Assembly (NCBI GenBank): GCA_028101545.1
Contig: JAOHKZ010000019.1
Span: 1-41,052 of the forward strand
Length of the DNA: 41,052 bases
Reading direction: 5' to 3'
DNA from: Opitutales bacterium
GTDB taxonomy: Bacteria > Verrucomicrobiota > Verrucomicrobiia > Opitutales > Seribacteraceae
Shown: piece after piece, positions 15,793 through 41,052 of the stretch
Layout: the number at the start of each line of letters is the position of its first letter
Numbering within the stretch: the first letter of the stretch is position 1
Notes under the pieces: model-generated
Databases searched by the model: none
What the model was told of the DNA's origin: nothing
The model's input: the letters and a program-made list of their open reading frames with translations, nothing else
Program-made: the position numbers and the translations under genes

Positions 15793-16911
15793 TCAATCCA
15801 GTAAAACCTGAAAATCTTTAATATATTTTCGTGACAACCTCTCGACTTCATATTCTTTACCCCGTGTTATACATTCAATTGAATAAACGCTGTTTTTCTC
15901 TGAACCTTGCATCGCCTCTTCTAGTTTTCTAGCAAGTCTTTGAACCACATTGTTTGAGCGATGATCAACAACATATCCATTTTTCTGATCAGTAACTAAA
16001 TCTTCGAAGCACTCAAGAGACGAAACAATAGGAACACACCCACAACTCATCGCCTCAAGAACGGCCAACCCAAAAGTCTCACCTTTTTCCGCAAAAGATG
16101 GATATACAAATAATTTTGCTTTTTCTAAACTGGCTTTTATTTCAGTAATTGAAAATGTAGGTTCAAAAATTTCTATGGTAGATCCGCAATCTTTTGCTTC
16201 ATCCTTAACTTGAGACAAGTAGGATTCTCCCCCACCCCCTTGTTCGAATCGCCATGGTCCACGAATATTTAATTTCCATCCGTTACGAATATTAAGGGGA
16301 ATCTTCTTAAATGCTTTTATCAATTCCAAAACACCTTTCTCGGGGTGAATTCTTCCTAAGAATAAAAGCGTTGAAGGTCTGTCAAAATAGCTAGTACTTT
16401 TTTCAACCCTCCAATTTATTGGGTACGGTAAGACAGAAATTGCTTTTGCCCTATCGGGTATTTCATTTTGCACTGCCCGTAAAATCGCTTTTGTGGGAAC
16501 TTGAAACCGACTGGCCTTTTTATAAAACTTTAACTGGCCTTTGGGATATCTTCCTACATGAACATAAATCTTTCCAAATTTTTCTTTATTTAATAAAAGA
16601 GGAGCCCAAAATGCATGAGTTACCAAAATATCAGCTTGTGGTAATACTTTTTTAACACGCAGTACGTAAAAGATTTCTAAAAATTTCAAAAATAAAGAAT
16701 TCTTTACACTATCAAATCCTTTCACTCTTACATGTTGAACGGTTCCAATTTGTTCATTCTCCGGAAGGCCATCACACAGTCTTGAAATATGAGTTACCGA
16801 ATGGCCAGCATCTCCAAAACACTGGCCCAGTGCCTCCCAAGCCTTCTCAATGGCTCCTCCCCTTAAAGCTGGTACCGGTAAAAATGCACCTTGTAAAATT
16901 GTTATTCTCAA
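15793..16911 (-). CDS. Glycosyltransferase, family-4 (GT-B) type
   Basis: A 372-residue glycosyltransferase of GT-B fold that probably transfers a sugar from a nucleotide donor to a surface glycan or protein. The N-terminal acceptor domain starts RITILQGAFLPVPALRGGAIEK. The C-terminal donor domain shows LLFLGRIHPEKGVLELIKAF and the EX7E motif in GETFGLAVLEAMSCG, followed by VPIVSS. The start is a TTG at 16911; no ATG or GTG fits nearby. It begins 15 bp after the preceding glycosyltransferase, so these are co-transcribed. Substrate and linkage cannot be read from sequence. Confidence 0.9.
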   Translation of the reverse strand: MRITILQGAFLPVPALRGGAIEKAWEALGQCFGDAGHSVTHISRLCDGLPENEQIGTVQHVRVKGFDSVKNSLFLKFLEIFYVLRVKKVLPQADILVTHAFWAPLLLNKEKFGKIYVHVGRYPKGQLKFYKKASRFQVPTKAILRAVQNEIPDRAKAISVLPYPINWRVEKSTSYFDRPSTLLFLGRIHPEKGVLELIKAFKKIPLNIRNGWKLNIRGPWRFEQGGGGESYLSQVKDEAKDCGSTIEIFEPTFSITEIKASLEKAKLFVYPSFAEKGETFGLAVLEAMSCGCVPIVSSLECFEDLVTDQKNGYVVDHRSNNVVQRLARKLEEAMQGSEKNSVYSIECITRGKEYEVERLSRKYIKDFQVLLD

Positions 16912-16926
16912 ATTTATGAAATTTTT

Positions 16927-17958
16927 TTAAGTTGAAGGCAGAATAGAGATAATCTTTTCTACAGTGTGAGAAATATGAAGTTTTTCCCTAAAGCATCTCT
17001 CAGCATTATCTATACAATGAAGATGTTCTTTCGAAATCCATTTTATCAAAAGATCACTTATTCCATCCATGTCATCATTTGCAACAAAACCAGCATTTGA
17101 ATCTATAACCTCTCGCCATAAATTTACTTTGTTCGTTAGAAAAACAGGGGTTCCAACCGAAAGTGCTTCAGCTATAACCATTCCAAAGTTCTCTTGATGC
17201 GATGGAAGAATTAAGGAATCTGCGATACGTAAAGCCCCCCATTTTAAATTTCCTTTTAACATTCCCGACCAAACTATTTGAGTCTTATTATGAGTTAAGG
17301 TTTGTAAATATGATATAAAATTATCCCTATGATCAAGAGGTCCTGCTAGAAGAAGAACATCATCTTTATTACTTTCCTTTAAAAAACTCTTTATTAATAA
17401 ATCAACACCCTTTTTAGGATGGAATCTACCTAAATATAAAAGAATTCGTTTATCTTTCAGCTTAGGAAAACTTGAAAGAAACGAACTTATTTCTAGTTTA
17501 GAATCGTTTGAAGGATTTGTAACTCCCAAGCCGGTAACATATTCATTGCATTTATAAGGTGTAAATGTTTTTTGAGCCAAGTTGCGTTCCTCATCAGTTG
17601 TAAAACAAACAGCATGAGCATCCTTCATTATTTTGCCCTGTCGCCAAAACCAATATAATTGTTTCTTTAAATGCTTGATCAGATAATTTTTCTTGAACCA
17701 AGGGTCCAACATGCCATGGGGGAAAATTAAATATGGATTGCCTTGTAAATTATAATTTTGCCAAGCTTTCGAACCTGGCCACTGCCACAAACCATGTGAG
17801 AAGATAATATCATTTTTGTATATTTGATACCTTTTCTCGCAAATTACTTTAGAATCAAAGTTTCTTTTAAGAAACTCGTCGTTTAGTCGATTAACTGCTT
17901 CAATTACTCCACCAGTACGAGGATCTGAAGACTGAATTAAATGGATGAGTCTCGTCAC
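16927..17958 (-). CDS. Glycosyltransferase, family-4 (GT-B) type
   Basis: A 343-residue GT-B glycosyltransferase. Its N-terminus TRLIHLIQSSDPRTGGVIEAV is that of a GT4 acceptor domain. The donor domain shows ILLYLGRFHPKKGVDLLIKSF and the EX7E motif in ENFGMVIAEALSVG, followed by TPVFLTNKVN. The start is a GTG at 17958, forced by an in-frame stop two codons upstream, with a GAG stretch just before it. It lies 20 bp downstream of the 2095-residue giant protein gene and 15 bp upstream of the second glycosyltransferase, so the four genes form one probable operon. A role in glycosylating the giant proteins or a surface polysaccharide is an inference from this order. Confidence 0.9.
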   Translation of the reverse strand: MTRLIHLIQSSDPRTGGVIEAVNRLNDEFLKRNFDSKVICEKRYQIYKNDIIFSHGLWQWPGSKAWQNYNLQGNPYLIFPHGMLDPWFKKNYLIKHLKKQLYWFWRQGKIMKDAHAVCFTTDEERNLAQKTFTPYKCNEYVTGLGVTNPSNDSKLEISSFLSSFPKLKDKRILLYLGRFHPKKGVDLLIKSFLKESNKDDVLLLAGPLDHRDNFISYLQTLTHNKTQIVWSGMLKGNLKWGALRIADSLILPSHQENFGMVIAEALSVGTPVFLTNKVNLWREVIDSNAGFVANDDMDGISDLLIKWISKEHLHCIDNAERCFREKLHISHTVEKIISILPST

Positions 17959-17978
17959 CTCAAATTAAATAACAAAGC

Positions 17979-18263
17979 TTAATAAGATTTCCAAGAATTG
18001 CTCTGAAAAGAATAGTAACTGGCTGAATATTCTCCACTTTCAAAATAAATCCATCCGTTTTCAGATGCACTGTACAAGTATGGATAAATACTTGATTTCG
18101 TCCAAACCCAGCCAAGAGTGTTAGAATAGAACCAAAAGTTGCTGGGGGACACACCCGCAATGTATATCCAACCAAGACCTAATTTATCATCAAAGTCTCG
18201 GTGGTAAACCCATGGAAAATTAAAGTCCCAAAAGTTGCCAAACCAGCTTTCCTGCTTCCAATC
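17979..18263 (-). other. Aromatic C-terminal tail domain, copy 1
   Basis: Residues 2002-2095 of the 2095-residue protein are dense in Trp, Tyr and Phe. The segments WFGNF, WVYH, LGWIYI, LGWVWTKSSIYPYLY and GWIYF line up with the end of the 4532-residue protein. I know of no named domain for this pattern. Similar endings occur in large Verrucomicrobiota proteins, by recollection rather than search. Confidence 0.75.
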
Positions 18264-21200
18264 AGGAAATTCTTTGCCAAGGCTAATTGAATTTTCCCAA
18301 ATTAAATTAAATCGTGATGTATATCGCCGATCGTTTAAGATTTTTGAAATAGCATCAATTGTAGATAATTTTGAATAAGGTTCTACATCTTCATCTTTTA
18401 AGATATCCGCATTTTCTCGCCATAGAAGATGCATCAAAGTGGCGATTTTAAAATGTGAATCTCGAATATCATCCGTCGACAAAATATATGGCATCCTGTC
18501 AAAACGAACCTCTTTCGCCATATTATAAATAAAATCCACTGCTACTTCACCCGCATTATATCCTGCCCTAAAATTTATCGTCCCCCCATTACCAACATCA
18601 TAAGTAGGTGCAGGTACAATTTGATCCCTTCGAGGAGGCGAATCAGGGTTATACCCTGTAAATGCAACACCTAAATTGGGTTTTGTTCCCGATGGTAACT
18701 CCCAATATGCGGGCTCAAATGTACCCCACCATTCAAGCATTTTGTAAGAAGCCTGATACAATTGTTGTAAGGTCGGCTGTACGCCCCACTTGTTTTGGAA
18801 AGAACGTTTGATAAAATCGTACCTATTATTTTGAAAATTAATTATATTAGAAGTGTAATAACTTCCAACCAAATAGGGCACCCGCTCAAACCTAAAAGAG
18901 TAGTCATTACTAAGAAATAAAAAATCAATATAACTTTTTAACCAAAAAGGATCTGTTGCTTGACCCCCAAAAATCCCCGCGTAAGGATCGTTGGATAAAC
19001 CAATGTAAGAGTTGGAGTCAGATTCAAATTTACTAAATTCTGCATGCCAAGAACCAAAAACGACTTTATGAGCTGCGACGATATCAACCCTGTCGGAAAT
19101 AGCACCCATATCAGAAATTCCATTAATCCAACTTGCGACTTGTTGAGAATGATTACCAGAACCATCAAAAGATTCCAGAGCATAACTAATTTCATCAGAA
19201 GTCGGGCTTCTTGCAGTCAAATCAGTAAATAAAGACAATAAATTTGATTGCTCATCAACCCATGGTATTGGAGGAGCTATATTAAAGGTTATCGTGTTAG
19301 ATATAAATACAGGTACATGACCCTCAACACTATCCATTTCAACTAGAGCTAACAGTTGGACAGTTCCATCCGGTTTTGCATATTTCGAAAATTCAATATC
19401 GAAAAAAGTGGTAATTTCTTTTCTCATAATTGTATTTGTACTCGAATTTACATCCGTTGCCTGTAAGGAATTAAAGTTTATTCCGTTGGCTAGGAAATGA
19501 ATATCATTAACTTTTTCCAATAAGTCTGAAGGGCCATTAATAATCCCATTTACTGTAACAATTTGACCATCCAAAATTTGATTTTCACCAAGGCCGCTAA
19601 GTCCATTAACAATATCAATAGTCATGGTAGGAAAAATTTCGTTATGCAGATTGCTACCATATTTGGTATTAAAAGAATAATTACCCTGTAAATCAACAGC
19701 TACAACCGATAATGCCCATCGGGTAAGCAATGTTTTGCCGTCCTTCAATACAGACGGTGGTGAAAAACTTACATGATATGGAGGTGAAGTTTGTTCGGAA
19801 ATTTTTTCTCCATTTAAATAAAACATTACCCTTGCGAGGGAAGGTTCTTTTCCTGTCCGTCCAAGAAATTTTGCATTGCAACTTAAAGTTGATGCATTTG
19901 CAATCAAAGTCCTGAAAGGGTATACATTGGCAAATCCCTGGGCGTCCGCTGGAGTTTGACCTTCGTAATAAGCTAATGACCTTAAGTCAATCGATCCGGC
20001 AGACAACATTGCCTGTATCTCATCTTCCGTGTACGGACCTTCAGTATTATAGCCAACTAAATTACTATTTACAGTAGTTTCACCAGTAAAAAGATTCAAA
20101 ACAGTGGTTTGCTGAAATTGTGGAACCCGGAGATAAATCCGCTGGGATGTGAGTTTGGGATGAATGTCCAAAAATGTTTCAGCAACATCTCCTATATTTT
20201 GTTTAACATTAACATCCACAGGAGAAGAAAAATATTCGTTTCCAAGATTATCAATTAATTTGGCGATAAGCCGGTGATTTCCCGTTCGATTATTATTCCA
20301 AGGAAAAAACATGGTGGTTGTTTGGGATCCCCCGTAATCAACTGGTGAAGAACCTATCAAATTACCATCTGCATATAATTCAACTGAATCCACAGCACCT
20401 CTCAGAACAGAACCATTAATAAAAATTGGGTATTCTGCGTTAAGATTAACTTCATGACCAAGCGAAGAGAAAAAGCTCTCTTCTATAGAAATTTGTCCCC
20501 AATCCTGATAGGATGAATTTGTCTTTAAATCGCGATAAAAAATATCCCTAAAATTATTAGTTAAATTATTAATATCTTGATTAGAGTTTCCAAAAATCAA
20601 TCCACCCAAACCATCGGCATCCGAACTGTAAAAAACATACCTCCCATCTCCACTTAATGTTGGAAAACGGTGGGAAGGCATACTTGTAGTTGTGATATAA
20701 TTTGCTGGATGGCCAAACTTATTAAGGCTAGCTCTTTCATTTGATTGATCTTGGGCATTGAACACATAAATATCGTCAGTGACTTGATCCTCTTCGAAAT
20801 TGAAAACGGGTCTGCTGCCAGGAGATGTAACAGAAGTCATTGTAGTGGAAATTTCTGAATAACCTAAAATCATAGGAGAGGGAGAAATTTTAGGCGTGGC
20901 TCGAGTAAAACCATTCCCTTGAATAAGCATATTAGTCAATATATTCACGCTAAGCGCAGATGGGGTGCTAGAAGTAACCCTACCAGTAAAAGCCTTTAAT
21001 GTAAAATTTGCCAAACCCGTTGCATTATTTTCAATTTGTGGTCCACTGGATAAATTAGATGGGTTTGCCCATTGTTGGTTTATTATTCCAATAATACTAT
21101 TTCTTACCTGCTCTTCGCTTTGATTAATATTTACAGTAAAAGGAGGTGATGCAAATGAACCAAAAATAATTGTAATTTGTTTCGTATAATCTCCTATTGT

Positions 21201-24266: not shown

Positions 24267-24275
24267 TTTAATGAA

Positions 24276-24551
24276 TTATTGGTTTTCCCATTTTTTTGTA
24301 TCAAAATTATAATAAATTATTGGATTCGAATTGAGATCCCAATAATTCCAAACGTTATTCGAATTATAGAAGTATGGAAAAACACTAGGTTTCGTCCACC
24401 ACCAAATCTTTAAATTATTATGCCATATCCAATAGCCACTTGAATCCCCGGAACCTATATAAAGCCATCCAAGTTTGGCATGATAAACCCAAGTGGATTT
24501 TGTAGAGTAAAAATTTCCCATCCAATCTGAACCAAGCCAACCATCAAGGCC
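24276..24551 (-). other. Aromatic C-terminal tail domain, copy 2
   Basis: Residues 4442-4532 carry WMGNF, WVYH, LGWLYI, IWWWTKPSVFPYFY and VWNYW, matching the tail of the 2095-residue neighbour in order and spacing. Shared tails at the extreme C-terminus of otherwise different exported proteins are often sorting or anchoring signals. That role is inferred. Confidence 0.75.
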
Positions 24552-33500: not shown

Positions 33501-36500
33501 TCGGATGGAGCCAGTTGCATTAAAATCTTTTCCTGCACCAACCATTACAATGTCCGGTGTACTTGTATATCCACTTCCACCATAATTTAAATTCTCTATG
33601 GTTCCAACACCATCAACTATTGCTTCAGCTCGGGCAACTGGAAGATCAAAATCTTCCCAATATGTATTTCTGTAAACTACAACTGCTGGTGGAAAATCCC
33701 TTAAATTTCCAAACCCACCATATCTTATAAAATCATCTGTTATTGGATCACGTTTTAAATCAGCCACTTCAATAGCTAAAAGTTCTGTTGGGGTTAATAG
33801 GGATTTGGCAAAAGGTTTCGTTATATTTGTACCGTTCGGCCCAATTCCGTTTTGATATTCATATAAATTTGTTAAGGTTTTTGAATAATGTGAATCAAAT
33901 AAAGAGCCCCCTGTAAAAGTAACTTTGGGTTCTAAGGTATATCCATTCCCTTTAAATTCAACGAGGGGGTCGAAAAATAATTTAAGTCGTACTTTAGCCG
34001 GTTCATTATCTGGTTTATCAAAAAAGGTGAGGGGATACCCAGCAGATGTACTCTCCATAATAAATCGGTGAACTTCTCCACGATGAACCTCGAGTTGTTT
34101 ATTTGGTATACCATCGATTACAAAATTTAGTGAATTCGAATTGGCTGAGGGTATATGAGAATCCTGTAAACTTCCCACCACCCGAACGGTATGCTCGATT
34201 ATGGGTGCTTTTTGCAAAACTACTTTTGCTCCCTGAATGGGCCCGCTTTCAGACTTTACTTTTCCACTTAATAAAGAACCTGAGGTTTGATCAGCATCCC
34301 CTACTCGAATGGTAACACTCTCCGATGAAATTCCTCCCTTCATATCAGAAACTACTACTTTAACGATGTGATAACCAGATTTTGTAAATTTTGTTGAAAT
34401 ATCCCGACGGTTCAAATTCCTAGGATCACTTACAGGAACTTCATTAATGTACCAAGAATAAGCATAAGCCTTTTCATCGCCAGATGTGGGAACCACTGTA
34501 AAATTGGTATTGTGATTGATGGCTGGTGAAGAATCACTCACAAGTAAATTAAAAGTGGGGGCTTTTGATAATTTTCCCTCAATTGTGCCGATATTTACCA
34601 CTACTTCAATATATTCCATTGGATAAATTCCCCCCTTCGCAATGGGGGTAATATGTGCGTCCTGATCGTATTCGGAAAAAGTATGACCTAGTAAAAGTAA
34701 GGCATCGTCAAAATTTCCAGGCGTATTGGGTGTGGCGTCAATTAAGTAATTTTCCGCACTTTCGCTACCGAAAGCATTGCCGTTTAAAACATTTAAACCA
34801 TAGTCCAATTTTTCATGTTTTCTTCGGTATGAGAAATAATTTTTAGAATAAGGGGATAAATTATTAGCAGGTAAACGAATTCCGCGAATTCCGCGATGAG
34901 CAGAATTGGTTAAATTTCTTAATTCATGTGGAAACAAAGATGGATCAATCGTAAGCACACTTTGATTGTTTTCATCTAAGACACGTATTGTGGGTTCTGA
35001 AGAATATCCAAAGCCAGTTTCATTTACATCCAAAATAAAATGTACTTTTTCCGAAGAGTGGATTTGTGCGAGACTAAAGTTGGCATTTGCACCCTGCCCC
35101 GGCCCACCAATTTCAACACTACCATTCCAATCATAATAACCTGTCGAAACATTAAAAATCCATTGTGGATTCGAAGAATTCTGAAGAACTTCGACCAAAT
35201 CATCTGTGGAAAGATTCAGGTCATATGAAATCGCTGAAAGTGGATTAGGAGCGTGCCCAAAATCATGTCGGTAAATACGAAATGTATTATTATGTTCCGA
35301 ATTTTTCACCTGAAAAGGAGAAGACTTAATTTGGTCGGATTCGTAAAAGTCCAAAATATCTACTGAACTATTTGCCTCACGCCCAATTTTATAACCCATG
35401 GGTAAATAACCTTTTGCTACAATGGTTAAATCACCTTTTTCAGGCTGTCCAGTACCCATAACGGAATACTGGTTACCATATTCGAGTTCCCCCCATTCGT
35501 CACCTATCGGGTTATAACCTTCTGATATAAGTTTGTTCGCATGTAAAAGACCAAAGTTATGACCGAGTTCATGCGCCATCACTTTAACCGAGGATTTGGC
35601 CGTACAATGACTACCTGGTGCACCCACTGCACCTAAGCCTCCTCCGCTATCAGTCGTAACACCGTCACTGTTATCATAAGTAGAAACGAATACCCAGGAT
35701 ACTGCTGTCATTCCCCACTTAACTTGAACAAATGGCGAAGTGATAGGGTTGGAACCAGCCCTTTCAACGATAGTCAGTTTTGGCATAGAGTGATAATAAG
35801 CACCATTATCGAGAACTTTTATTGCGTAAATCTCGCCATTGAGAATTTTGGCAACGGCCTGTGCGGATTTAAATTTGGGATCAGGAAGACCATTACTCAT
35901 CAAATTCCCACCCTCAAAAATTATTACGGGGTCTGTAAAATTACCAAAAGGTTCACTTACAACTATGTCAGTCACACCCTGAAAAGCATAACCATTAAAA
36001 TCATAGTCATCTGAAATAGCTCTGGCTTTGTGCAATGCACTTACGCCGACATCACTAATTATGCTATGTCCACTTCCCGTATTAGGAACAGTTTCTGGAC
36101 GGAAATAATTATTAAAAAATTCCAACCTTTCTGGAACGGGAAAGTAAACTACAGGAGATGACCACCATGTCTGACCGGTGCTATCAAAAATTCGGTTATC
36201 AACTCCAGTAGTACCTGCAGGCACTCTTTTCCATTTTGGATAATCAAGAGTAACCGTTGGCGAAATTACATAATCCAGATCAAAATTTTGGTCGGAATTA
36301 TCAAGATAAAATTTCTGCACTCCATCCATAACTGCAATTAAATCTTCTCGCGTATCAGGATCAAAGGAATCATCTCCCCGCGGTCCGGTAATTGGATTAC
36401 CATTTTCATCAACAGGATTACCCGAAGATCCTTCGAAATAATTTCCCTCATCATAAAAACGACCCGGTACAACCAATACCTTTCTTCGTCCCTGTGGTTG

Positions 36501-37874
36501 CGCAGCAGCCATGGGATCTTTATCTATTTCAAATTCAAACAAGGCATATGTTTTGTTACTTTCATTCAAATCTACCCAGTTTCCATCATTTAAATCCATG
36601 GCAAGTGCACCCATCGGAGGATTTTTGGGATGCCCGGTTTTCCATTTTGAGTCTGTTTGATTAAAATCTTTATTATCAACCCATACCCATTGACTAGAAT
36701 TAACATCATATTTACCACCTAACCAAATATAATTAATGGAGGCAGGAATTGAACCCGTAATTTTGTGCCGCTTCATTAATTCAAAAATTAATTCATTTTC
36801 ATTATCATCTTCAACACAGGCTAATTTCCCAGTAATTCCATTAAGTCCATCATACAAATTCGCAGTTTCATTCGATTCCAACCAAGAACGCTGAACTTCC
36901 ATCAACCAATAACTACTGAAGTAAGTGTCTCCTGTACTAGATGCGATAATGGGATATTGCATTCTACGGTTCCCCCAAGATGATCTTTCAAAACTCTCAA
37001 TTTGTTCAGAGAAAAATTTTCGTTTAAGTTGACTAGGAAAACTGAAATTTTTACCTCCTAGGGATAGGTTATATTTATCATCTTCACTTGAATCATTTTC
37101 ACGGAGTTTGTAGGAAGTTTCTGAAATGGCTAATTTACCATTTAAATGAACACCCCAAATGGCTAATTTTTTAACAGTTGGTAAAGATTTTCTTTTGCCA
37201 TAAACAAAAAGTTCGTAATCAGACCCATCCTGTAATTTTGCTTTGCGAACAATCATGCCAGCGGGCTCTTTGGGGTTAAAGCACATGTGAATGGAATCCA
37301 CATCCGCAAAATCATGCACCCATTTTTCGGTATGTTTTTGAATCTCTTCAGGCAAACGAGCTAATCGGTAATCTTCGATCGCCAGCTCGATAGCCATTTG
37401 GGGATCTCCCTGTATAATTCTTTCGAATATTTTTTTTCTCTCTTTCGCTATGTTTTCACCGTCAATTAATAATTGTCGATGAAATCTTGGGTCATGAACA
37501 CAGCTTTTTAAACTTTCACATTTAAAAGCTTCGTATGCCTGCAACCAATTTTCAAAAGCAAGAATTGATTGATGTTGCGAAAGATCTTCGTAGTCATCGG
37601 TTTTACACCATTCAGGTTCGTCTGATTTAACTACTTTTGTAATTAGAGATTTAGTCTCTAATTCTGATAGGTTTTGATCATTAGGTTCAGAAGATATTTC
37701 TTCTTTGATATCAATACCTGTGGGGAGCGGGGGAGGTAATAGATTTTGGCTTTTTCTAAAAATTATAAATGCTAGTATTACTAAACATACCCATGGAAGT
37801 AAACTTTTGCCCAACCAAGAAAAAGACCTTGGATTAAGGTTATTTTTTAGGCGATCAAGGGCGTGTAGGGGCAT
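24276..37874 (-). CDS. Giant signal-anchored mosaic protein (4532 residues) with a metzincin-like protease domain
   Basis: A single transmembrane segment at residues 23-40 anchors or exports the protein. In order: a Cys-containing helical region (60-230); a C-type-lectin-like domain (305-445, YIWLGG and WKTGHP); a zinc protease site HELGHNFGLLH (H768, E769, H772, H778) with Met-turn YSVMG (M806); a PKD-like module (1103-1190); two LamG-like domains (about 1538-1717 and 1750-1943); a lactonase-like propeller (2118-2502); GxGY repeats; a Cys/His-rich stretch (2858-2960); a cupredoxin-like module (3598-3675); Asp-rich calcium-type repeats (3740-3810); Ig-like modules; and an aromatic tail (4442-4532). 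The coding sequence is intact over 13.6 kb. Likely a surface-anchored adhesin/protease; substrate unknown. It heads the giant-giant-GT-GT operon. Confidence 0.92.
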   Translation of the reverse strand: MPLHALDRLKNNLNPRSFSWLGKSLLPWVCLVILAFIIFRKSQNLLPPPLPTGIDIKEEISSEPNDQNLSELETKSLITKVVKSDEPEWCKTDDYEDLSQHQSILAFENWLQAYEAFKCESLKSCVHDPRFHRQLLIDGENIAKERKKIFERIIQGDPQMAIELAIEDYRLARLPEEIQKHTEKWVHDFADVDSIHMCFNPKEPAGMIVRKAKLQDGSDYELFVYGKRKSLPTVKKLAIWGVHLNGKLAISETSYKLRENDSSEDDKYNLSLGGKNFSFPSQLKRKFFSEQIESFERSSWGNRRMQYPIIASSTGDTYFSSYWLMEVQRSWLESNETANLYDGLNGITGKLACVEDDNENELIFELMKRHKITGSIPASINYIWLGGKYDVNSSQWVWVDNKDFNQTDSKWKTGHPKNPPMGALAMDLNDGNWVDLNESNKTYALFEFEIDKDPMAAAQPQGRRKVLVVPGRFYDEGNYFEGSSGNPVDENGNPITGPRGDDSFDPDTREDLIAVMDGVQKFYLDNSDQNFDLDYVISPTVTLDYPKWKRVPAGTTGVDNRIFDSTGQTWWSSPVVYFPVPERLEFFNNYFRPETVPNTGSGHSIISDVGVSALHKARAISDDYDFNGYAFQGVTDIVVSEPFGNFTDPVIIFEGGNLMSNGLPDPKFKSAQAVAKILNGEIYAIKVLDNGAYYHSMPKLTIVERAGSNPITSPFVQVKWGMTAVSWVFVSTYDNSDGVTTDSGGGLGAVGAPGSHCTAKSSVKVMAHELGHNFGLLHANKLISEGYNPIGDEWGELEYGNQYSVMGTGQPEKGDLTIVAKGYLPMGYKIGREANSSVDILDFYESDQIKSSPFQVKNSEHNNTFRIYRHDFGHAPNPLSAISYDLNLSTDDLVEVLQNSSNPQWIFNVSTGYYDWNGSVEIGGPGQGANANFSLAQIHSSEKVHFILDVNETGFGYSSEPTIRVLDENNQSVLTIDPSLFPHELRNLTNSAHRGIRGIRLPANNLSPYSKNYFSYRRKHEKLDYGLNVLNGNAFGSESAENYLIDATPNTPGNFDDALLLLGHTFSEYDQDAHITPIAKGGIYPMEYIEVVVNIGTIEGKLSKAPTFNLLVSDSSPAINHNTNFTVVPTSGDEKAYAYSWYINEVPVSDPRNLNRRDISTKFTKSGYHIVKVVVSDMKGGISSESVTIRVGDADQTSGSLLSGKVKSESGPIQGAKVVLQKAPIIEHTVRVVGSLQDSHIPSANSNSLNFVIDGIPNKQLEVHRGEVHRFIMESTSAGYPLTFFDKPDNEPAKVRLKLFFDPLVEFKGNGYTLEPKVTFTGGSLFDSHYSKTLTNLYEYQNGIGPNGTNITKPFAKSLLTPTELLAIEVADLKRDPITDDFIRYGGFGNLRDFPPAVVVYRNTYWEDFDLPVARAEAIVDGVGTIENLNYGGSGYTSTPDIVMVGAGKDFNATGSIRNWSVKKDQWWQKKFILNTSELNIKNQGKEFDPNSTLPVALYPKSPFAYWSFDRNESLFDSNETKFQPSPAFNNNITSKLHLYWKCDENRTDKNNDTFYLNDFSGNDPSNHGREENNNVPTFSWGVKNKALSLTDPNHKLWVNGGESIPDGNFTVSCWLNASESNSLLGIFKTNQINFSPDMTVGSYTFNPTLQKWFHFATTWNGVNRKIFINGKEKHSDTVQNTNLEFASFLGFLLDEVKVYTRVLTDSEIRQMAGKLFLDLSGNRRNIVPIGIDMNASTFASTIKPNELTELEYSSDLGDALYLNGSQYLDLTNNRADFNTLSVATYAFWVKPDSTDKEMTLFSASNVDDNASYYRLFINRDGFINQEVINKGEEINFLQTQKNNLLNTNFQVSNTGWHHVVVQITEQGTTIMVDGENTGAKPPAGSKEDRGFISDIKGVNQIAIGYFKTTLGTDYFSGFIDEFHFYDRILNNNEITYLINQGITKHKIMRARLHAHVDAVGTINVIDNGKGYQVQPRVEFEYNATHYNGVNYSKAYGEPELNATSVEKIIMVQKFPNPLDIELPDGNIVQTDEVEIVNSAGAFLPGGTINVPLATLPKGVSGFSSPPEITIQPSLGKPGDLNATGFPLLYLDENQSVDVLNGGRGYNTSSAGFGFDWKVDWLDGAEDVISVEDATDSNISHLYVLSTQSSTIAWIRHSNNFGVISYDYIKYDPLDPFALNFLNGLNSIAISPDEKHVYITADVNESVSWFDRDLVTGALTYGGTLEQGVNGVDGLDGASTVTISPDDHHVYVTAERNESVSWFDRDTTTGALTYVGSVEHNVTGVKGASGPISLAVSLDGEHAYVTADVNGSNSWYDGNISTGPLIYDRISWFDRDTTTGALTYVGSLEHNITSEGLNGPNSVIISPNDNHVYVTADVNESVSWFDRDTTTGALTYRGTLEQGVNGVDGLTGAENIIGTNDHIYITSKQNNSVSWFDRDLATGGLTYVGTLEDGVNNIDGLRSASSISISKDGLRAYVTASSDDTLNWMNRDVNTGALTYVGGIKNRSGVRIFGEGYRPPKFKALINNGEFYGFSLVQRGEGDYDESTNKIHYLSLHSGNANPQIPVSPWKKNDQNRTNTTRAANKYEITGISVGKSGFGWTEEPAVYLDWTNPNRDVSPVDVKFNTTLSHVSVDNPGFGYSVPVKVQVVGGNRITSDPSYAFRPAVVVPQTLDSYSGITSYRIVDPGQGYKTTPGQEPVIRITGGGGLGATAIADINGNGQLASVMPEFFGRGYRNVDNNNTPIAKVSKIGGPIGDETNASVLLRLGGGLQKPVVSMSIKFWNSFAYAAPWIDILDRGRSSIPESDKAEATAKVVDGNITKIIVTKSGKNYIDPYVKVSPTPPGLLSKLLAQPRWKCYNIRENRAGRKVICGHVVGSQNRPTSCHGEKDLKQRPSEQDLIDWRFNHNSKFGAPFPLCQDHGDHLEGNFTINTCSATSENFILINDPHRPYEEFKHLDINCSAVSEDGKIREIVIDNHGTHYYAPNLTFSGTGGGVDAVPVFNSDGKIKEIFYYDDRIKNLEMDLIDRPSGAGHGFTERPFTKDYKYNSAVNERDMVHMTVSWEKAYQKKALRDVTFENSDSPQKNDPPQPLSPSLLDAWGDRVMSVDILDQGSYLNGTSLSVTILNQAQPAVEFNSTHANYPDFQPASLTAFVTNGLSSFNLDGNATYQIDKQLMADNKEYTLWRSTFLAEPTVDLLNTLGSETYSYFESEDKSDETFRLNGAFNYSIDSEKSYFDFFVDERVPNNLYYGLDSSNWYSMGGEIVVKEGMLGDNWGDTNDWDSIAYTDSNGYYVMPDLEPGMYNIGVIMEDEKYQDITFRADSNLTLISQMVYVPGFDSLTLQSDGTGNGLSSLVWDKTSQARSIHNSANPPNLNKILEGIGGGFKAGEESKIQFRFLPHPDNTGRGTPALTATISAIDGTLTLQVVDNNESINFDLNDKFTVSYASSIEGIDFTQDYEYADLSNSYWGGGKATESNSTSNFTLKLTPQSSGSHNAVELDIAAAANNFSASTSFNLSVFDENGSDINGTSGLKYSSKATWGIVFDQNVKDPNSTISSKTLNLSPAPVIFKVSGGDGTKPYYNFSDLSGSIVDFSEYKLYPGSTYIFINDGVSDDHPFMIGESYGDSNSIHVSHGGEFNSNNLGDRINVNLPNDFSGNLLYFCTKHNSMQSLFVIESSSSFSSRQAVLTLFSSLRGKGARLFAYWNDQNVSTRVMASGRTTLSDKEKWLDQYFYSTNHVIASTDDNDSDQLFDYEEWNYRTNPREPDTDDDNLTDWDEITNIFTNPLVADTDNDGFDDFYEHSYKDADGNKPLNPVVFNFLPPPPVITLFGNATISTNAGATILLGAFSSEKLPNKQSTELTVKMEGNYTSAVSRSGNSEIGYIYSVLPNAISGIYKVNYSVLDSYKRIIQKSQTLNIVGLDSPPSLTLSDNGPIKMYKGSSTINSIPLLDYINSNPSASDTVDGNLTSKIQISISGDTSIDVNQTGEYEVVYSVIDSSKNEVKKSLLVIIEDYAYVMSGKAIDGYLVGSTVVFDAKEDGFDGQHDLVQIITTDSDGGFKLQFTPQEFIAYDINENGIIDFNEGKIIISGGMDVSRNVSFTGKYKSGATASVISPLTTLIEAIAGDNPSPDQLNAASQKVATALGLPDLTEVDPIAYDPIYAASIGDDLSKSVLGATARLASAMNQVDALASSTSLNSGSAASVAFINQVADKISISDSNNPLEDSDFLNTAIKESLQVVGPGVSPSQLDDAVAIMEQSDSLLKSTSENPDSNATTIAINLAKNQLAVQSKIIDEYQAIVGGSSLTSIRNSSTTDKLSVTSLAINTINVFPPVASNFQFYIGPNSWGNNSDVGLISGHDGDPGTNISWEIISSNFDLDADGNKPFNIDQDGKVIIGDMDDLLPYLGKSRQITVRLSDGQMSSTATGSLQIDNHLSLTSKSLNGLDGWLGSDWMGNFYSTKSTWVYHAKLGWLYIGSGDSSGYWIWHNNLKIWWWTKPSVFPYFYNSNNVWNYWDLNSNPIIYYNFDTKKWENQ
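26440..26660 (-). other. Asp-rich calcium-binding-type repeats
   Basis: Residues about 3740-3810 of the giant protein read DNDSDQLFDYEEW, REPDTDDDNLTDWDEI and VADTDNDGFDDFYEH. The spacing of Asp and Asn resembles thrombospondin type 3 repeats, which bind calcium in many marine exported proteins. Confidence 0.65.
26850..27080 (-). other. Cupredoxin-like module with type 1 copper ligand pattern
   Basis: Residues about 3598-3675 begin with TYIFINDGVSDDHPFMIG and end with LYFCTKHNSMQSLFVIES. A His in HPF followed by Cys, His and Met in CTKHNSM is the ligand order of type 1 copper proteins. Copper binding is therefore plausible but unproven. Confidence 0.5.
28995..29305 (-). other. Cys/His-rich insert in the giant protein
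   Basis: Residues about 2858-2960 hold WKCYNI, VICGHVVG, SCHGEKD, LCQDHGDH, NTCSA and NCSA. That is six cysteines and several histidines in about 100 residues of a protein otherwise poor in Cys. Disulfides or a metal site are possible. No known domain was recognised. Confidence 0.5.
30370..31520 (-). repeat. Tandem lactonase-like beta-propeller blades
   Basis: About seven blades of roughly 52 residues (156 bp) each contain SWFDRDTTTGALTYVG-like segments and VYVTADVNESVSWF. The DNA of three blades is nearly identical over about 35 bp, starting at 30696, 30852 and 31062 (plus-strand GGCACCCGTTGTGG...). The step between the last two is 210 bp instead of 156 because one blade carries an extra 18 residues (NISTGPLIYDRISWFD region). 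This indicates recent duplication. Confidence 0.75.
35440..35600 (-). other. Metzincin-like zinc protease active site
   Basis: HExxHxxGxxH (residues 768-778) is followed 28 residues later by a Met-turn YSVMG (M806), the arrangement of metzincin peptidases. All three histidines and the glutamate are present, so the domain could be active. Confidence 0.8.
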
Positions 37875-38156
37875 AACTATAAGTTACATTATAAAATGTC
37901 GTATATCAAGGTATGTAATATTAAACAATTTTCTTTCAATTCATTAACATAACTGGCGATTTTGATACATATTAAAAATTGGAGGCATACACACAAGATT
38001 TTCCTCAATTAACGCCTTACCAAATACTGGTGATGTTTTAGCCCATGGCTGTTCAAAACTTTCTTACCATCAAATAAAAACATCATTTGTAGTTAGATGG
38101 CACACAATCATATAACAGAATATTCAACTACATCTGTAGTGAAGATTAAATTAAAC
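37875..38156. other. Intergenic gap between the giant protein and the secretin
   Basis: These 282 bp are AT-rich and contain no convincing gene, tRNA or strong terminator. A short palindrome CTACA-TC-TGTAG occurs near 38128-38139. It is the only long gap in the minus-strand block, so the giant-protein operon probably has its own promoter here. Confidence 0.5.
37888..37893 (-). promoter_or_regulatory. Possible -10 box upstream of the giant-protein operon
   Basis: A perfect TATAAT reads on the minus strand, ending 13 bp before the ATG at 37874. There is no good -35 at 16-18 bp (a TTGATA sits only 10 bp away), and the leader would be very short. Weak evidence. Confidence 0.22.
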
Positions 38157-39617
38157 TTAGTTTCCGGGCCCATCTTCTTTTTTAACAGTTCTACGAATCG
38201 TGCCCGTTGGAGTCATTATAACAGGGTCTTTAAAAATAGATTGGGGGCTAATGTTTTGGATGACTTCCCTGACGGGGGAACCTCCGCGAGAGACAATACT
38301 GGCACTTACGAAAATTAAGAGATTTCGCTTAGAGTAACTTTCGGCAGACGACTGAAAGAGCCTTCCTAATAAAGGTATATTACCCAAAAAGGGTACTTTA
38401 TCATTAACAGTCTTTACCTCTTCTCGAGTAAGTCCACCTATTATAACAGTTGCACCATCGAATATTGTAACTGAGGTGTTTACTTTCCTAACTGAAAAAA
38501 TTGGCATTAATATTCCAGAAGGTTGAATAATCATTGGAGGAGAGCCTACTGCAGAAGTTCCTATCATTGCAGAAGATCCACCATATTCAATAAATCCATC
38601 GAATTCAGTTACCTTAGGGCTTAACTCCAAGGCTATGGAATTATATTTTTCTATTCTTGGAGTAACATCCATTACCACACCAACCTCACGAAACCCTGGT
38701 TGCTCATCGTCTGGAGCAACTGTATCAAATTGAGGGATTGCACTTTGTATTTGTATTGCCTGAGCCAAAGCAGCCGCACCTTGGTTATTTTGGCCTCCGC
38801 CTCCTCCGCCTCCTGGAGTTGGTGCCGGCTCATAGTCAGTTGGATATATAAATTCTTGAGCAATCGTTATTTGGGCGGGTTGACCGTCCATCACGGTAAT
38901 TCTTGGAGCACTTAACAAATCTGTTCCCTGTTTTCGTTGCAGTGCATTGATCAGCAGATTGGCTTGTGAACCACCCAATATCATAGATCCACCACCAGCG
39001 GACAATTGAAGGTCTAACTCCTGTGCATCAACAAAAGGGGTTACACCAACACCAATTCCAATGCGACCGGGAAGGTTAGGCAAGTTATTAGGAATACGCA
39101 TACTTGCTTCTTCATTGTCAGGCATACTAATTATTGTATCTCGAGTTGTTCCGGTAGGTGAATGAGCTTCAGCCAGATTACGGGTGCCACCAGATAAACT
39201 TCGAGGAAAACTCAACATAGGCTGACCCTTTGAATCCATCAAAGGTTGTCCAGTTTTTTGATCAACAATATAATTAGGCGTTCCAAAACTATAAGACCAG
39301 TCAAAACTAATCTCATCAAGTGCACCTTCTTGAACTTCTAAAAATTTTGTCTCTATCTCGACTTGCCTACTAGAATCTGCATCAAGTCTTTCCAGAATTC
39401 GCTCTATTAAATCAAGAAATCGCCTTTCATGAGTAACAATCATTTGAAAACCATCAAAAACAAACTTGTGTCCTTTTGTGTCATCAAAGGGAATTCCAGC
39501 ACCCTCTAAGAAGGCTTTTATTTTTACTCCTGTGTCATCAGCACCTCCACCGCCACCTCCAGGTGCAGGTGCGAAAGGATCTGCCCCTCCCCCCCCCCAT
39601 TCCGGCACCAGCTCCAC
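38157..39617 (-). CDS. Secretin fragment 3: N-domain and pore domain
   Basis: This frame encodes the C-terminal part of the secretin. It starts with a Gly-rich linker and continues with VKIKAFLEGAGIPFDDTKG and FDGFQMIVTHERRFLDLIER, a periplasmic N-domain. VEIETKFLEVQEGALDEISFDW and the pore signature TVIIGGLTREEVKTVNDKVP with PFLGNIPLLGRLF follow. A second Gly run (PTPGGGGGGGQNNQ) lies in a surface loop. The apparent ATG at 39617 is in the Gly-rich linker and is probably not a real start, because the upstream frame supplies the rest of the protein. All expected secretin elements are complete through the stop at 38157. Confidence 0.85.
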   Translation of the reverse strand: MELVPEWGGGGADPFAPAPGGGGGGADDTGVKIKAFLEGAGIPFDDTKGHKFVFDGFQMIVTHERRFLDLIERILERLDADSSRQVEIETKFLEVQEGALDEISFDWSYSFGTPNYIVDQKTGQPLMDSKGQPMLSFPRSLSGGTRNLAEAHSPTGTTRDTIISMPDNEEASMRIPNNLPNLPGRIGIGVGVTPFVDAQELDLQLSAGGGSMILGGSQANLLINALQRKQGTDLLSAPRITVMDGQPAQITIAQEFIYPTDYEPAPTPGGGGGGGQNNQGAAALAQAIQIQSAIPQFDTVAPDDEQPGFREVGVVMDVTPRIEKYNSIALELSPKVTEFDGFIEYGGSSAMIGTSAVGSPPMIIQPSGILMPIFSVRKVNTSVTIFDGATVIIGGLTREEVKTVNDKVPFLGNIPLLGRLFQSSAESYSKRNLLIFVSASIVSRGGSPVREVIQNISPQSIFKDPVIMTPTGTIRRTVKKEDGPGN

Positions 39618-40200
39618 CTGTCATTCTTTGAATAGTACCTTGGGTAACTTCATAAAATTCGGTTTCTAAAGACCTACCAGTAAAAGTACCTCCTGATTTG
39701 GAAACCACAATCGCATCCGATCGAACATCGTAAGTCCAACTTACCATTTCAGCAATAAATTGAATCATCTGACCCAATGGCATTGTGTTAAGTGTTATGG
39801 TTACATTCGGAAAAGGTTCATCACCATTTTGTAATGGAATAATATTAACACCTTTTTTCGAGGGGTCTGGCTCTGTTAAATCAAATGTTTTTGCCTGTCT
39901 TTGTAGCTCAGCCATAACTTCTGGCAATGGCGACTCAAAAAATTGAACACCGGGTACTTGAATGATCTTTAATTTACTTTCAAGGTTACTTGGTCCTTCT
40001 TTCACTTTTTCAACCTCTTCTATTTGTCTATCAAATACTTTGGGCCTTTCCCATTCTCTTTCAATTTCTTCCAACATTTCCTGCCTAGTTTTAAGATAAC
40101 CCAAATAACTTTCCTCGCCCCGCATTCTTGCTATTCTTTTCATTGGCCTCATAATTTTCAGAAAACCGAGTTTCAACAGTTCTGTAGGTTTCAGTGGCAC
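39538..40200 (-). CDS. Secretin fragment 2: linker and STN-like module
   Basis: This middle frame carries YLKTRQEMLEEIEREWERPK and VQFFESPLPEVMAELQRQAK. A short STN-like module follows (VTITLNTMPLGQMIQFIAEM ... YDVRSDAIVVSKSG). It then enters the G10 run and reads out as Trp/Arg-rich nonsense before the stop at 39538. The sensible protein passes into the third frame at the G run. The first 20 or so residues after the nominal ATG (40200) overlap the end of frame 1 and look less protein-like than frame 1, so the frame change probably falls near 40140-40160. Confidence 0.75.
   Translation of the reverse strand: MPLKPTELLKLGFLKIMRPMKRIARMRGEESYLGYLKTRQEMLEEIEREWERPKVFDRQIEEVEKVKEGPSNLESKLKIIQVPGVQFFESPLPEVMAELQRQAKTFDLTEPDPSKKGVNIIPLQNGDEPFPNVTITLNTMPLGQMIQFIAEMVSWTYDVRSDAIVVSKSGGTFTGRSLETEFYEVTQGTIQRMTGGAGAGMGGGRGRSFRTCTWRWRWRC
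39589..39598 (-). repeat. G10 homopolymer inside the secretin gene
   Basis: Ten consecutive C on the plus strand (G on the coding strand) sit in the Gly-rich linker. With ten G the frame is broken; nine or twelve would join frame 2 to frame 3 as ...GMGGGGADPFAP.... Such tracts are known slipped-strand sites and also common sequencing-error sites. Confidence 0.9.
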
Positions 40201-41052
40201 CCGTTAAATCGCCATTTATGAATTGGACTTTTGCACGCATCAGTAATTCGTTTAAATCATTCCTGTCTTCTCGCCAATTAGGAGTAAATTCAGTTATATC
40301 TCTTTTATATGGATTTGCTTTATCCTTAGATATTCTATTTTCCATTCTTTCCGCCTTTTGAAGTTCTTCTTTTAACGATTTTTCGCCATCAGTCTTTTTT
40401 AACCCGGGTCTACCATATGACAAGGGATCTCCCTGAATATCACGATCTTGATAAAAACCCGTTCTAAAAGCATCTAAATATTGGTTAGCTAAATCCCAAT
40501 CTTTTTCTTCTCGTGCGTCTTCCGCTTTTTCTAAATTAATACGATTTTTCAACAAAGCTGCCTCTAAAATAATAGGCCAAGTGCGAGTATTAGGTTCTAA
40601 AAAGGTTTTAATTTTTAAAAGAGATGTATCAGCATCTTCATAATTTTTTTTCCTTATTTGTCCCTTTGCCTTAGCTAACATCTCTTCCGCCTTAATTGCC
40701 TGTTCCTCGACTTTCTGTTTTGCTTTTTCCATCTCAGCCTCAAAATCAGGTTGGGTATCAACGCCGAGAATATTAGTTTCTGCATTTCTTTTACCATCCT
40801 CGACTTCCTTGTATTGAACAACTAGTTCCTGTACTTCACCTACCTTCCCCTTAAGCATCGCCTCACCCATTCGATACCAAGTAATTTGCTGTTTAGTTTT
40901 ATAAATATCACTAATCAAAGCAATGGAGGATGTATTTTCTGGCAGAATAGAAAGTGCTTCGTCTAGTTGATCTGCAGCAAGATCATACTGGCCGTCTGAT
41001 CCATCATTTCGAGCTTTCTCCAATAGTCGCTCAGCACGACGCATGAGTGTTC
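40091..41052 (-). CDS. Secretin fragment 1: N-terminal helical/TPR-like region (partial)
   Basis: The frame is open to the window edge, and two codons before the first Met (41044) are still coding, so the signal peptide and true start lie outside. Helical repeats such as RRAERLLEKARNDG, YDLAADQLDEALSILPEN and NYEDADTSLLKIKTFLEPN are TPR-like. A charged coiled-coil-like segment (about residues 105-135) lies between them. The last 17 or so codons (after FSENYEA) are the frameshifted tail. The helical region probably lies in the periplasm and may contact peptidoglycan or inner-membrane partners, by analogy with related secretins. Confidence 0.78.
   Translation of the reverse strand, partial: TLMRRAERLLEKARNDGSDGQYDLAADQLDEALSILPENTSSIALISDIYKTKQQITWYRMGEAMLKGKVGEVQELVVQYKEVEDGKRNAETNILGVDTQPDFEAEMEKAKQKVEEQAIKAEEMLAKAKGQIRKKNYEDADTSLLKIKTFLEPNTRTWPIILEAALLKNRINLEKAEDAREEKDWDLANQYLDAFRTGFYQDRDIQGDPLSYGRPGLKKTDGEKSLKEELQKAERMENRISKDKANPYKRDITEFTPNWREDRNDLNELLMRAKVQFINGDLTGATETYRTVETRFSENYEANEKNSKNAGRGKLFGLS

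What the first reader, a model, noticed from the sequence alone, without database searches (positions are those of the whole stretch)
15793..41052. Secretin, two tail-sharing giant surface proteins and two glycosyltransferases in one minus-strand block
Four genes (4532 aa, 2095 aa, GT, GT) follow each other with 9, 20 and 15 bp gaps. An outer-membrane secretin lies directly upstream. Both giants are exported and end in the same roughly 90-residue aromatic domain. A plausible reading is a dedicated export/display and glycosylation unit in which the tail directs the giants to the secretin or outer surface and the glycosyltransferases decorate them or an attached glycan. The order and shared tail are seen; the functional link is inference.
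Basis: partly seen in the sequence, partly recalled or inferred. Interest (0 to 1): 0.75.

Follow-up and report, generated by a model that had tools for sequence, protein, structure and literature searches.

The report
Pilus-type secretin locus with giant proteins
In one family of Verrucomicrobiota bacteria, the genes for a pilus-like surface machine are followed, in a conserved order, by two giant probable surface proteins and two sugar-transferring enzymes, and both giants end in an uncatalogued domain that many other exported-looking proteins of these bacteria also carry.

Summary
On the minus strand lie a secretin, 4532-aa and 2095-aa proteins, and two GT4 glycosyltransferases, with gaps of 282, 9, 20 and 15 bp. 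The two giants share only a ~85-residue aromatic tail (BLASTP E 6e-15).

The block recurs. In the window's family the Amuc_1098-type secretin is followed by giant1 in 27 of 27 fetched loci with enough downstream sequence. Giant1 to giant2 holds in 14 of 14, giant2 to GT-A in 11 of 11, GT-A to GT-B in 9 of 9. Upstream, relatives carry PilM-like and other genes in the order of Amuc_1102-1099, so this resembles the Akkermansia "MUL2" type IV-pilus-like locus with an added giant-protein cassette. A shorter giant2-like protein follows the same secretin in four other families, once without a tail.

Tails occur 3-38 times per genome in the family. Away from the giants they are no nearer to GT4 genes than chance (6 of 112 within 5 kb, ~5.2 expected). 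Two ~90% complete genomes have tails but no Secretin match. The tail looks like a general C-terminal surface or sorting domain without a Pfam or NCBIfam model.

Best reading (inferred): the pilus-like machine deploys giant adhesin/hydrolase-like proteins for particle or glycan attachment.

The parts
38157..41044 (-). Amuc_1098-type outer-membrane secretin, 3' part, in three overlapping ORFs (40091-41044, 39538-40200, 38157-39617); 5' end off the contig
   Evidence: NCBIfam NF042912 Amuc_1098_fam E 2.4e-82 and 2.5e-20 for two of the ORFs, below the curated cut-off of 750 bits; Pfam Secretin E 1.1e-35; collinear with intact 1166-1265 aa secretins
24276..37874 (-). giant1, 4532 aa: N-terminal hydrophobic stretch, weak C-type-lectin-like and metzincin-like regions, LamG, lactonase-type propeller, Ig-like, C-terminal tail
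   Evidence: orthologue follows the secretin in 27 of 27 fetched family loci that can be judged, own included
37746..37802 (-). giant1 N-terminal hydrophobic stretch, possible uncleaved signal anchor
   Evidence: hydrophobic window within the first ~40 residues in 13 of 13 orthologues; absence of a cleavage site judged by eye
35541..35573 (-). giant1 HELGHNFGLLH zinc-protease motif, residues 768-778
   Evidence: HExxHxxGxxH in 10 of 13 orthologues; Pfam Reprolysin_5 E 5e-4, below its cut-off
32070..32585 (-). giant1 LamG / ConA-like lectin domain, residues 1764-1935 (best of two stretches)
   Evidence: Pfam Laminin_G_3 E 1.5e-25
30684..31148 (-). giant1 lactonase-type beta-propeller, best of four stretches, residues 2243-2397
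   Evidence: Pfam Lactonase E 2e-28
24282..24527 (-). tail domain of giant1
   Evidence: tail profile E 2.6e-22
17979..24266 (-). giant2, 2095 aa: signal peptide-like start, PD40 propeller repeat, Big_7, core related to DUF4214 proteins, C-terminal tail
   Evidence: DUF4214 is not matched in giant2 itself but its core is homologous to secretin-downstream proteins that do match DUF4214
17985..18248 (-). tail domain of giant2
   Evidence: tail profile E 3.0e-24; 40% identical to the giant1 tail
16927..17958 (-). GT-A, GT4-type glycosyltransferase, 343 aa
   Evidence: Pfam Glycos_transf_1 E 2.4e-23; nearest NCBIfam HpsP E 9.5e-36, below cut-off; orthologue next to giant2 in 10 relatives
15793..16911 (-). 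GT-B, GT4-type glycosyltransferase, 372 aa
   Evidence: Pfam Glycos_transf_1 E 8e-27; orthologue next to GT-A in 8 relatives
15189..15728 (-). thioredoxin-like protein with a signal-type start, 179 aa; at this place in some relatives only, so a doubtful member of the unit
   Evidence: Pfam Thioredoxin_8 E 5.6e-22; an ORF of 172-184 aa at this place in G048, G039, G011, G003, G049 and none in G016, G017, G032 (by size and place)

Best explanation
The block is the 3' half of an Amuc_1098-1102-like ('MUL2', type IV-pilus-like) envelope locus that, in one family of Opitutales-type Verrucomicrobiota, carries its own giant proteins. SHOWN: conserved gene order (a signal-bearing ~225-aa gene, a PilM-family gene, two genes of ~370 and ~430 aa, secretin, giant1, giant2, GT-A, GT-B); the shared tail; a giant2-like partner behind the same secretin in four other families. 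INFERRED: giant2 is exported by Sec and giant1 is held by an N-terminal membrane helix. Both cross or sit at the outer membrane through the pilus-like apparatus. There their lectin-like, propeller, Ig and metzincin-like modules bind and perhaps cleave particulate or glycan-rich material, in the manner of a pilus-associated adhesin. The tail is a general C-terminal surface-retention or sorting domain used by many other exported-looking proteins, not an address for this secretin alone. The two GT4 enzymes make a glycan that decorates or anchors the giants. This last step is the weakest.
For: Secretin to giant1 in 27 of 27 fetched family loci that can be judged, own included; 5 further fetched loci end within the secretin or within ~130 bp of it. 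Giant1 to giant2 14 of 14, giant2 to GT-A 11 of 11, GT-A to GT-B 9 of 9, own included. Where the ORFs could be measured, gaps giant1-giant2 are -19 to 146 bp and giant2-GT-A 8 to 42 bp. Upstream genes in one relative (G001): NCBIfam Amuc_1101_fam E 2e-69, pilM E 1e-32, Amuc_1100_fam E 6.5e-6, secretin Amuc_1098_fam E 2.3e-92, all below curated cut-offs; Pfam PilM_2 over its cut-off. Giant2-core homologue directly after the secretin in G020, G019, G074, G163 and G210, of 19 loci outside the family that can be judged (weak in G163 and G210, whole-sequence E 5e-7 and 3e-9). Tail at the C-terminus of 13 of 13 giant1 and 11 of 11 giant2 orthologues with that end present; in five giant2 the match ends 23-28 residues before the end. 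Of 7 other tail proteins scanned, 6 carry trypsin, subtilase, cadherin, LamG, LRR or PQQ-propeller domains. [quoted passage not shown]
Against: No functional data. No genome of the family reaches the NCBIfam cut-off for Amuc_1098 (0 of 42), so the link to MUL2 rests on order and sub-threshold scores; the Amuc_1099- and 1102-like genes match no pilus model and are named by place. The lectin-like and metzincin-like regions are below Pfam cut-offs, and the zinc motif is missing in 3 of 13 orthologues. In 14 of 19 loci outside the family that can be judged, no protein of this kind follows the secretin, so the machine works without giants there. Presence of pilin, PilB, PilC or PilT genes in these genomes was not tested. 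GT-A and GT-B could belong to the hisF side of the locus.
Confidence: 0.45

Rival explanations
1. One reading: the tail is the signal that directs its bearers to this secretin, and the GTs decorate tail-bearing proteins.
For: Outside the family, a tail protein lies directly after this secretin in G163, G210 and G020; G020 has only 2 tail matches in its genome and one is this gene. All 24 giant orthologues with the end present keep the tail.
Against: 3-38 tail matches per family genome. Tails in G031 and G035 without any Pfam Secretin match (G031 has one weak NF042912 match, E 9.3e-7, outside the secretin pore part). No tail match in the giant2-like protein after the secretin of G074, and no tail gene after it in G182. 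31 of 35 named tail loci show no secretin, upstream-gene or GT-A/GT-B match in the held flanks. No excess of GT4 near non-giant tails.
Confidence: 0.12
2. Co-regulation only: the giants are exported by another route (for instance one of the other secretins of the genome) and are attached by the tail to an outer-surface glycan; the operon groups surface genes needed at the same time.
For: The window's own genome has two further secretin genes on C1 and C14, whose type I did not test. Tail proteins include a trypsin and a subtilase with signal-type starts (starts judged by eye), which resemble general secretion substrates. The tail is predicted all-beta and is rich in aromatic residues.
Against: Does not explain why the giant pair follows this one secretin in every judged family locus, nor why a giant2-like gene sits there in four other families.
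Confidence: 0.28
3. The two GTs are unrelated to the giants: envelope-glycan genes that happen to sit between the locus and hisF.
For: No GT pair follows the secretin-neighbour protein in G163 (f14) or G020 (f3), where flanks were read. A hisF-like gene (named by eye) is the next gene, or the next after the thioredoxin-like ORF, in all 9 family loci that extend so far, own included.
Against: GT-A follows giant2 in 11 of 11 and GT-B follows GT-A in 9 of 9 loci, on the same strand with short gaps or overlaps, while hisF is on the opposite strand.
Confidence: 0.3

Closest known systems
MUL2 / Amuc_1098-1102 type IV-pilus-like locus of Akkermansia muciniphila and aquatic Akkermansiaceae (PMC13174399, PMC4960237, PMC5332112: passages read)
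   Same: Secretin related to the Amuc_1098 family, preceded by a PilM-like Amuc_1101 relative, an Amuc_1100 relative and further genes of like order and size.
   Different: Two giant proteins and two GT4 genes follow the secretin here. Secretin scores in the family are under the cut-off.
PilY1 / PilC type pilus-tip adhesins (recalled, not retrieved)
   Same: Large propeller-containing exported protein tied to a type IV-pilus machine.
   Different: No PilY1/PilC family among the Pfam matches of either giant at E up to 0.1; the giants are larger (recalled comparison) and coded after the secretin.
C-terminal sorting domains such as PEP-CTERM or the type 9 secretion CTD (recalled)
   Same: Short domain at the C-terminus of many unrelated exported-looking proteins of one genome.
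   Different: About 85 aa, aromatic, predicted all-beta, no transmembrane segment or Arg cluster by eye; no NCBIfam match at E up to 1 and only single Pfam matches, best E 0.066, among 34 members.
Hormogonium polysaccharide GT HpsP
   Same: GT-A's best NCBIfam match, E 9.5e-36.
   Different: 123.6 bits against a cut-off of 550; not a member.

Membership tests
Amuc_1098 family type IV pilus secretin (NF042912) | score over the curated cut-off of 750 bits | tested here: not met
   277 bits for the best window ORF, which is a fragment; 0 of 42 family genomes over the cut-off, best 399.8 bits
Amuc_1098-1102 (MUL2-type) locus | secretin preceded by a PilM-family gene and further genes in the order and sizes of Amuc_1102-1099 | tested here: met
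   order in relatives; Pfam PilM_2 83.8 bits against a cut-off of 27 in G001. In the window itself these genes lie off the contig
Amuc_1098-1102 (MUL2-type) locus | upstream genes over the NCBIfam cut-offs for Amuc_1101 and Amuc_1100 | tested here: not met
   235 against 650 bits and 25.8 against 180 bits in G001
Amuc_1098-1102 (MUL2-type) locus | mediates attachment to glycans | not testable with these tools
   function proposed for Akkermansiaceae in PMC13174399 (passages read)
Type IV pilus system | pilin, PilB/PilT ATPases and PilC in the same genome | not tested
PilY1/PilC adhesin | PilY1/PilC Pfam domain | tested here: not met
   absent from the Pfam matches of both giants at E up to 0.1
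Catalogued C-terminal sorting domains | match of the tail to a Pfam or NCBIfam model | tested here: not met
   34 tails: NCBIfam 0 families at E up to 1; Pfam only single weak matches, best E 0.066
GT4 glycosyltransferases | Pfam Glycos_transf_1 over cut-off | tested here: met
   83 and 94.3 bits against 26.4
Metzincin peptidase (giant1) | HExxHxxGxxH plus Pfam metzincin match over cut-off | tested here: inconclusive
   motif in 10 of 13 orthologues; Pfam scores below cut-off

The most novel reading that the evidence does not exclude
Giant1 is a trans-envelope tether: fixed in the inner membrane by its uncleaved N-terminal helix, threaded through the Amuc_1098-type secretin, with its lectin, protease and propeller modules and the tail outside the cell. 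That would be a secretin that permanently displays a tethered giant instead of a pilus. The tail would found a new family of C-terminal surface-sorting domains.
Probability: 0.15. Interest if true: 0.88.

Novelty: new variant of a known kind. Interest (0 to 1): 0.6.

Why it matters
Proteins of Amuc_1098-1102 are highly abundant in Akkermansia (PMC4960237, PMC5332112, passages read), and what this machine displays or carries is, in my judgement, unsettled. A family of relatives codes for two giant proteins immediately after its secretin. They are concrete candidates for the cargo or tip, and allow a test of whether the machine works as a pilus, a secretion channel or a tether. The tail domain, up to 38 matches per genome in the 42 family genomes and without a Pfam or NCBIfam match, marks a set of probable surface proteins that can be predicted from sequence.

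Tried and rejected
Tail as a GT-linked mark: tested in 5 genomes and rejected beyond the giant locus. Four of the 6 near cases look like one other conserved tail-GT4 pair; homology was checked for G000 and G017 only. The expected number ignores contig ends and uses rounded genome sizes; at 3 kb it was 4 seen, 3.2 expected, at 10 kb 6 seen, 10.2 expected. Tail as a secretin-only signal: see rival 1. Tail fold: the AlphaFold2 model is all-beta, 10 strands, mean pLDDT 77, best PDB match E 0.79, so no fold is claimed. Sequence search of the PDB with the tail profile: only ribosomal mS26 at E 2.7, taken as chance. Fold of the giant2 C-terminal core from 4 sequences failed (mean pLDDT 41) and is not used. 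Promoter/terminator scan of the secretin-giant1 gap: nothing on the minus strand. First tail alignment was too diverse for the named-genome scan; a narrower one worked, so that scan is biased to tails with the motif W[VI]YHx[KQ]LGW.

Scope of the synteny tally: I count 33 of 42 family genomes with a hit below E 1e-20. 31 of these were fetched or are the window; G005 and G006 were left out because their hits lie at contig ends. Judged loci have at least ~750 bp after the secretin. Further hits on other contigs of G015 (C95, C144) and G042 (C29) were not fetched, so the tally is of fetched loci, not of all. Names such as hisF, rho and metG were given by eye, and the call of the family as marine would rest on recall of record names, so I do not make it.
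Full report
WHAT IS IN THE WINDOW. The window is a complete 41,052-base contig (C11) of a 2.2-Mb, 57% complete, 92-contig genome. On the minus strand lie: a secretin in three overlapping ORFs (41044-38157), giant1 (37874-24276, 4532 aa), giant2 (24266-17979, 2095 aa), GT-A (17958-16927), GT-B (16911-15793) and a thioredoxin-like protein (15728-15189); a hisF-like gene (named by eye) follows on the other strand. Gaps from secretin to GT-B are 282, 9, 20 and 15 bp. The three secretin ORFs map in order to one 1259-aa secretin of a relative, with two frame breaks, one of them at a run of G; the 5' part is off the contig. I did not read through or mend it.

THE TWO GIANTS. They share only the last ~85-90 residues (BLASTP E 6e-15, next alignment E 0.26). 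Giant1 has two LamG stretches (E 1.5e-25), a lactonase-type propeller (E 2e-28), an Ig-like domain (E 3e-7) and sub-threshold lectin- and metzincin-like matches. Giant2 has a PD40 repeat and a Big_7 domain above their cut-offs, and CARDB below. An HExxHxxGxxH motif is present in 10 of 13 giant1 orthologues and missing in G017, G046 and G032. The 13 giant1 orthologues have a strongly hydrophobic stretch near the N-terminus without an obvious cleavage site; giant2 orthologues mostly start like signal peptides, often ending in AQ or GQ (judged by eye, no signal-peptide predictor was available).

THE GENE ORDER IS CONSERVED. Searches of the window's family (42 genomes, four genera) for giant2 and for the secretin gave hits on the same contigs at like distances in many genomes. 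I read the DNA round 16 secretin loci of 15 relatives and round one locus in each of 15 more genomes. Giant1 follows the secretin in 16 of 16 and in 10 of the 15; the other five contigs end within the secretin or within ~130 bp of it. With the window this is 27 of 27 loci that can be judged. Homology was checked by BLAST; the weakest case is a 158-aa stub, E 3e-15. Giant2 follows giant1 in 14 of 14, GT-A follows giant2 in 11 of 11 and GT-B follows GT-A in 9 of 9 loci that can be judged, own included. The secretin is a single ORF of 1161-1265 aa in the 14 loci of the first set where it does not lie at a contig end. Upstream, relatives carry four genes in the order and sizes of Amuc_1102-1099. 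In G001 the second matches Amuc_1101_fam (E 2e-69) and pilM (E 1e-32) and Pfam PilM_2 over its cut-off; the third matches Amuc_1100_fam (E 6.5e-6, under cut-off); the first and fourth match no pilus model, so their names rest on place.

OUTSIDE THE FAMILY. Twenty secretin loci of 20 other genomes were read. A protein homologous to the giant2 core follows the secretin in 5: G163 and G210 (f14, weak, E 5e-7 and 3e-9), G020 (f3), G019 (f2, cut by the contig end) and G074 (f12); three of these scanned with Pfam (G163, G074, G020) match DUF4214. The protein carries the tail in G163, G210 and G020; G074 has no tail match and G019 cannot be judged. No giant1 homologue was found in these stretches at E 0.01. 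So the secretin/giant2-like pairing is wider than the family, while giant1 and the GT pair at this place were seen only inside it.

THE TAIL. The tail profile finds 17 places in the own genome and 3-38 in each of 42 family genomes. In the class sample it finds copies in 4 of 286 genomes, the own one and three of f14; at most 19 candidates a genome were scored there, so counts are lower bounds. In one search one genome each of f2 and f3 has 10 and 2, and one genome each of eight other families none. Giants with the C-terminus present end in it in 24 of 24 cases. Of 7 other bearers scanned, 6 match Pfam: a trypsin, a subtilase-cadherin protein, LamG, LRR, PQQ-propeller and cadherin proteins. Thirty-four tails match no NCBIfam family and only single weak Pfam hits. 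A motif-biased scan of named genomes found 35 loci, 31 in records titled Opitutia, Opitutales or Verrucomicrobia/-microbiota and 4 in two MAGs titled Deltaproteobacteria. The AlphaFold2 model is a 10-strand all-beta chain of middling confidence without a PDB counterpart.

Tail and GT4: in five genomes, 6 of 112 non-giant tails lie within 5 kb of a PF00534 hit, about 5.2 expected; at 3 kb 4 against about 3.2, at 10 kb 6 against about 10.2. Tail and block: of 35 named tail loci, 4 hold the giants and 31 show no secretin, upstream-gene, GT-A or GT-B match at E 1e-8 in the held flanks, some of which are short. Tail without secretin: of 11 genomes searched with PF00263, G031, G033 and G035 have no match but 3, 8 and 5 tails. 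G033 shows an N-terminal secretin fragment at a contig end, so only G031 and G035, 90-91% complete, count; G031 has one weak NF042912 match (E 9.3e-7), and incompleteness remains a caveat. The class-wide secretin search found matches in 270 of 286 genomes, 81 over the cut-off. It also rings in 8 of 14 control genomes below the cut-off, so the 270 include other secretins.

HOW IT MAY WORK. The Akkermansia counterpart of this operon has been called MUL2, part of a type IV-like pilus system proposed to mediate attachment to fucose-rich glycans (PMC13174399, passages read, abstract included). [quoted passage not shown] PMC12418764 (passages) served as background. I infer that in this family the same kind of machine has a dedicated pair of giant adhesin/hydrolase-like proteins, with the tail as a general surface-retention domain and the GTs making a glycan for the giants or their anchor. 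Order, homology and tail distribution are shown; export route, display, binding, proteolysis and glycosylation are inferred.

NOVELTY. Searches of the open-access library for giant proteins or genes, sorting signals, PilY1, type IV pili and the mucin utilization locus with Verrucomicrobia, Opitutales or Akkermansia listed no title or abstract start on such giants beside this secretin or on this tail; apart from the four papers named above I saw the listings only. I file the locus as a new variant of a known kind, with an uncatalogued domain attached.

Noticed in passing
L087, L088, L095, L101 (records titled Deltaproteobacteria, WY4.bin13 and BP6.bin57): Canonical C-terminal tails in two MAGs titled as another phylum: transfer, a misnamed MAG or a wider range of the domain.
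   Followed up: partly
L130:3627-4913 and L138:1930-3219, with the GT4 at L130:5764-6876 / L138:4073-5191: A second conserved neighbourhood of a tail protein (trypsin domain in L130) and a GT4 gene in G000 and G017; tails within 1.5 kb of a GT4 in G046 and G016 may be the same pair.
   Followed up: partly
L120:7814-8629, L133:2055-2888, L137:3552-4424: A homologous 271-290 aa protein with a signal-type start and the motif F[AS]HE[FL][GA]H[IL][IL]CG, a possible small metalloprotease, sits directly downstream of a tail-bearing protein in G000, G035 and G017.
   Followed up: no
L063 and L064 (G012:C55 and C8): One genome carries two secretin-giant1 loci with different giant1 stubs: duplication or a mixed MAG. 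G015 and G042 also have secretin hits on more than one contig.
   Followed up: no
L132 (G000:C76): A short contig with tails in tandem, one with a TAG inside.
   Followed up: no
window 38157-41044; giants of G017, G048 and G049: Frame breaks in the window's secretin and in some relatives' giants, intact elsewhere; probably MAG errors but not proven.
   Followed up: partly
G032, G046, G017 giant1 (L040, L046-L047, L032): The HExxHxxGxxH motif is missing in three of 13 giant1 orthologues, so the protease-like region may not be essential.
   Followed up: no
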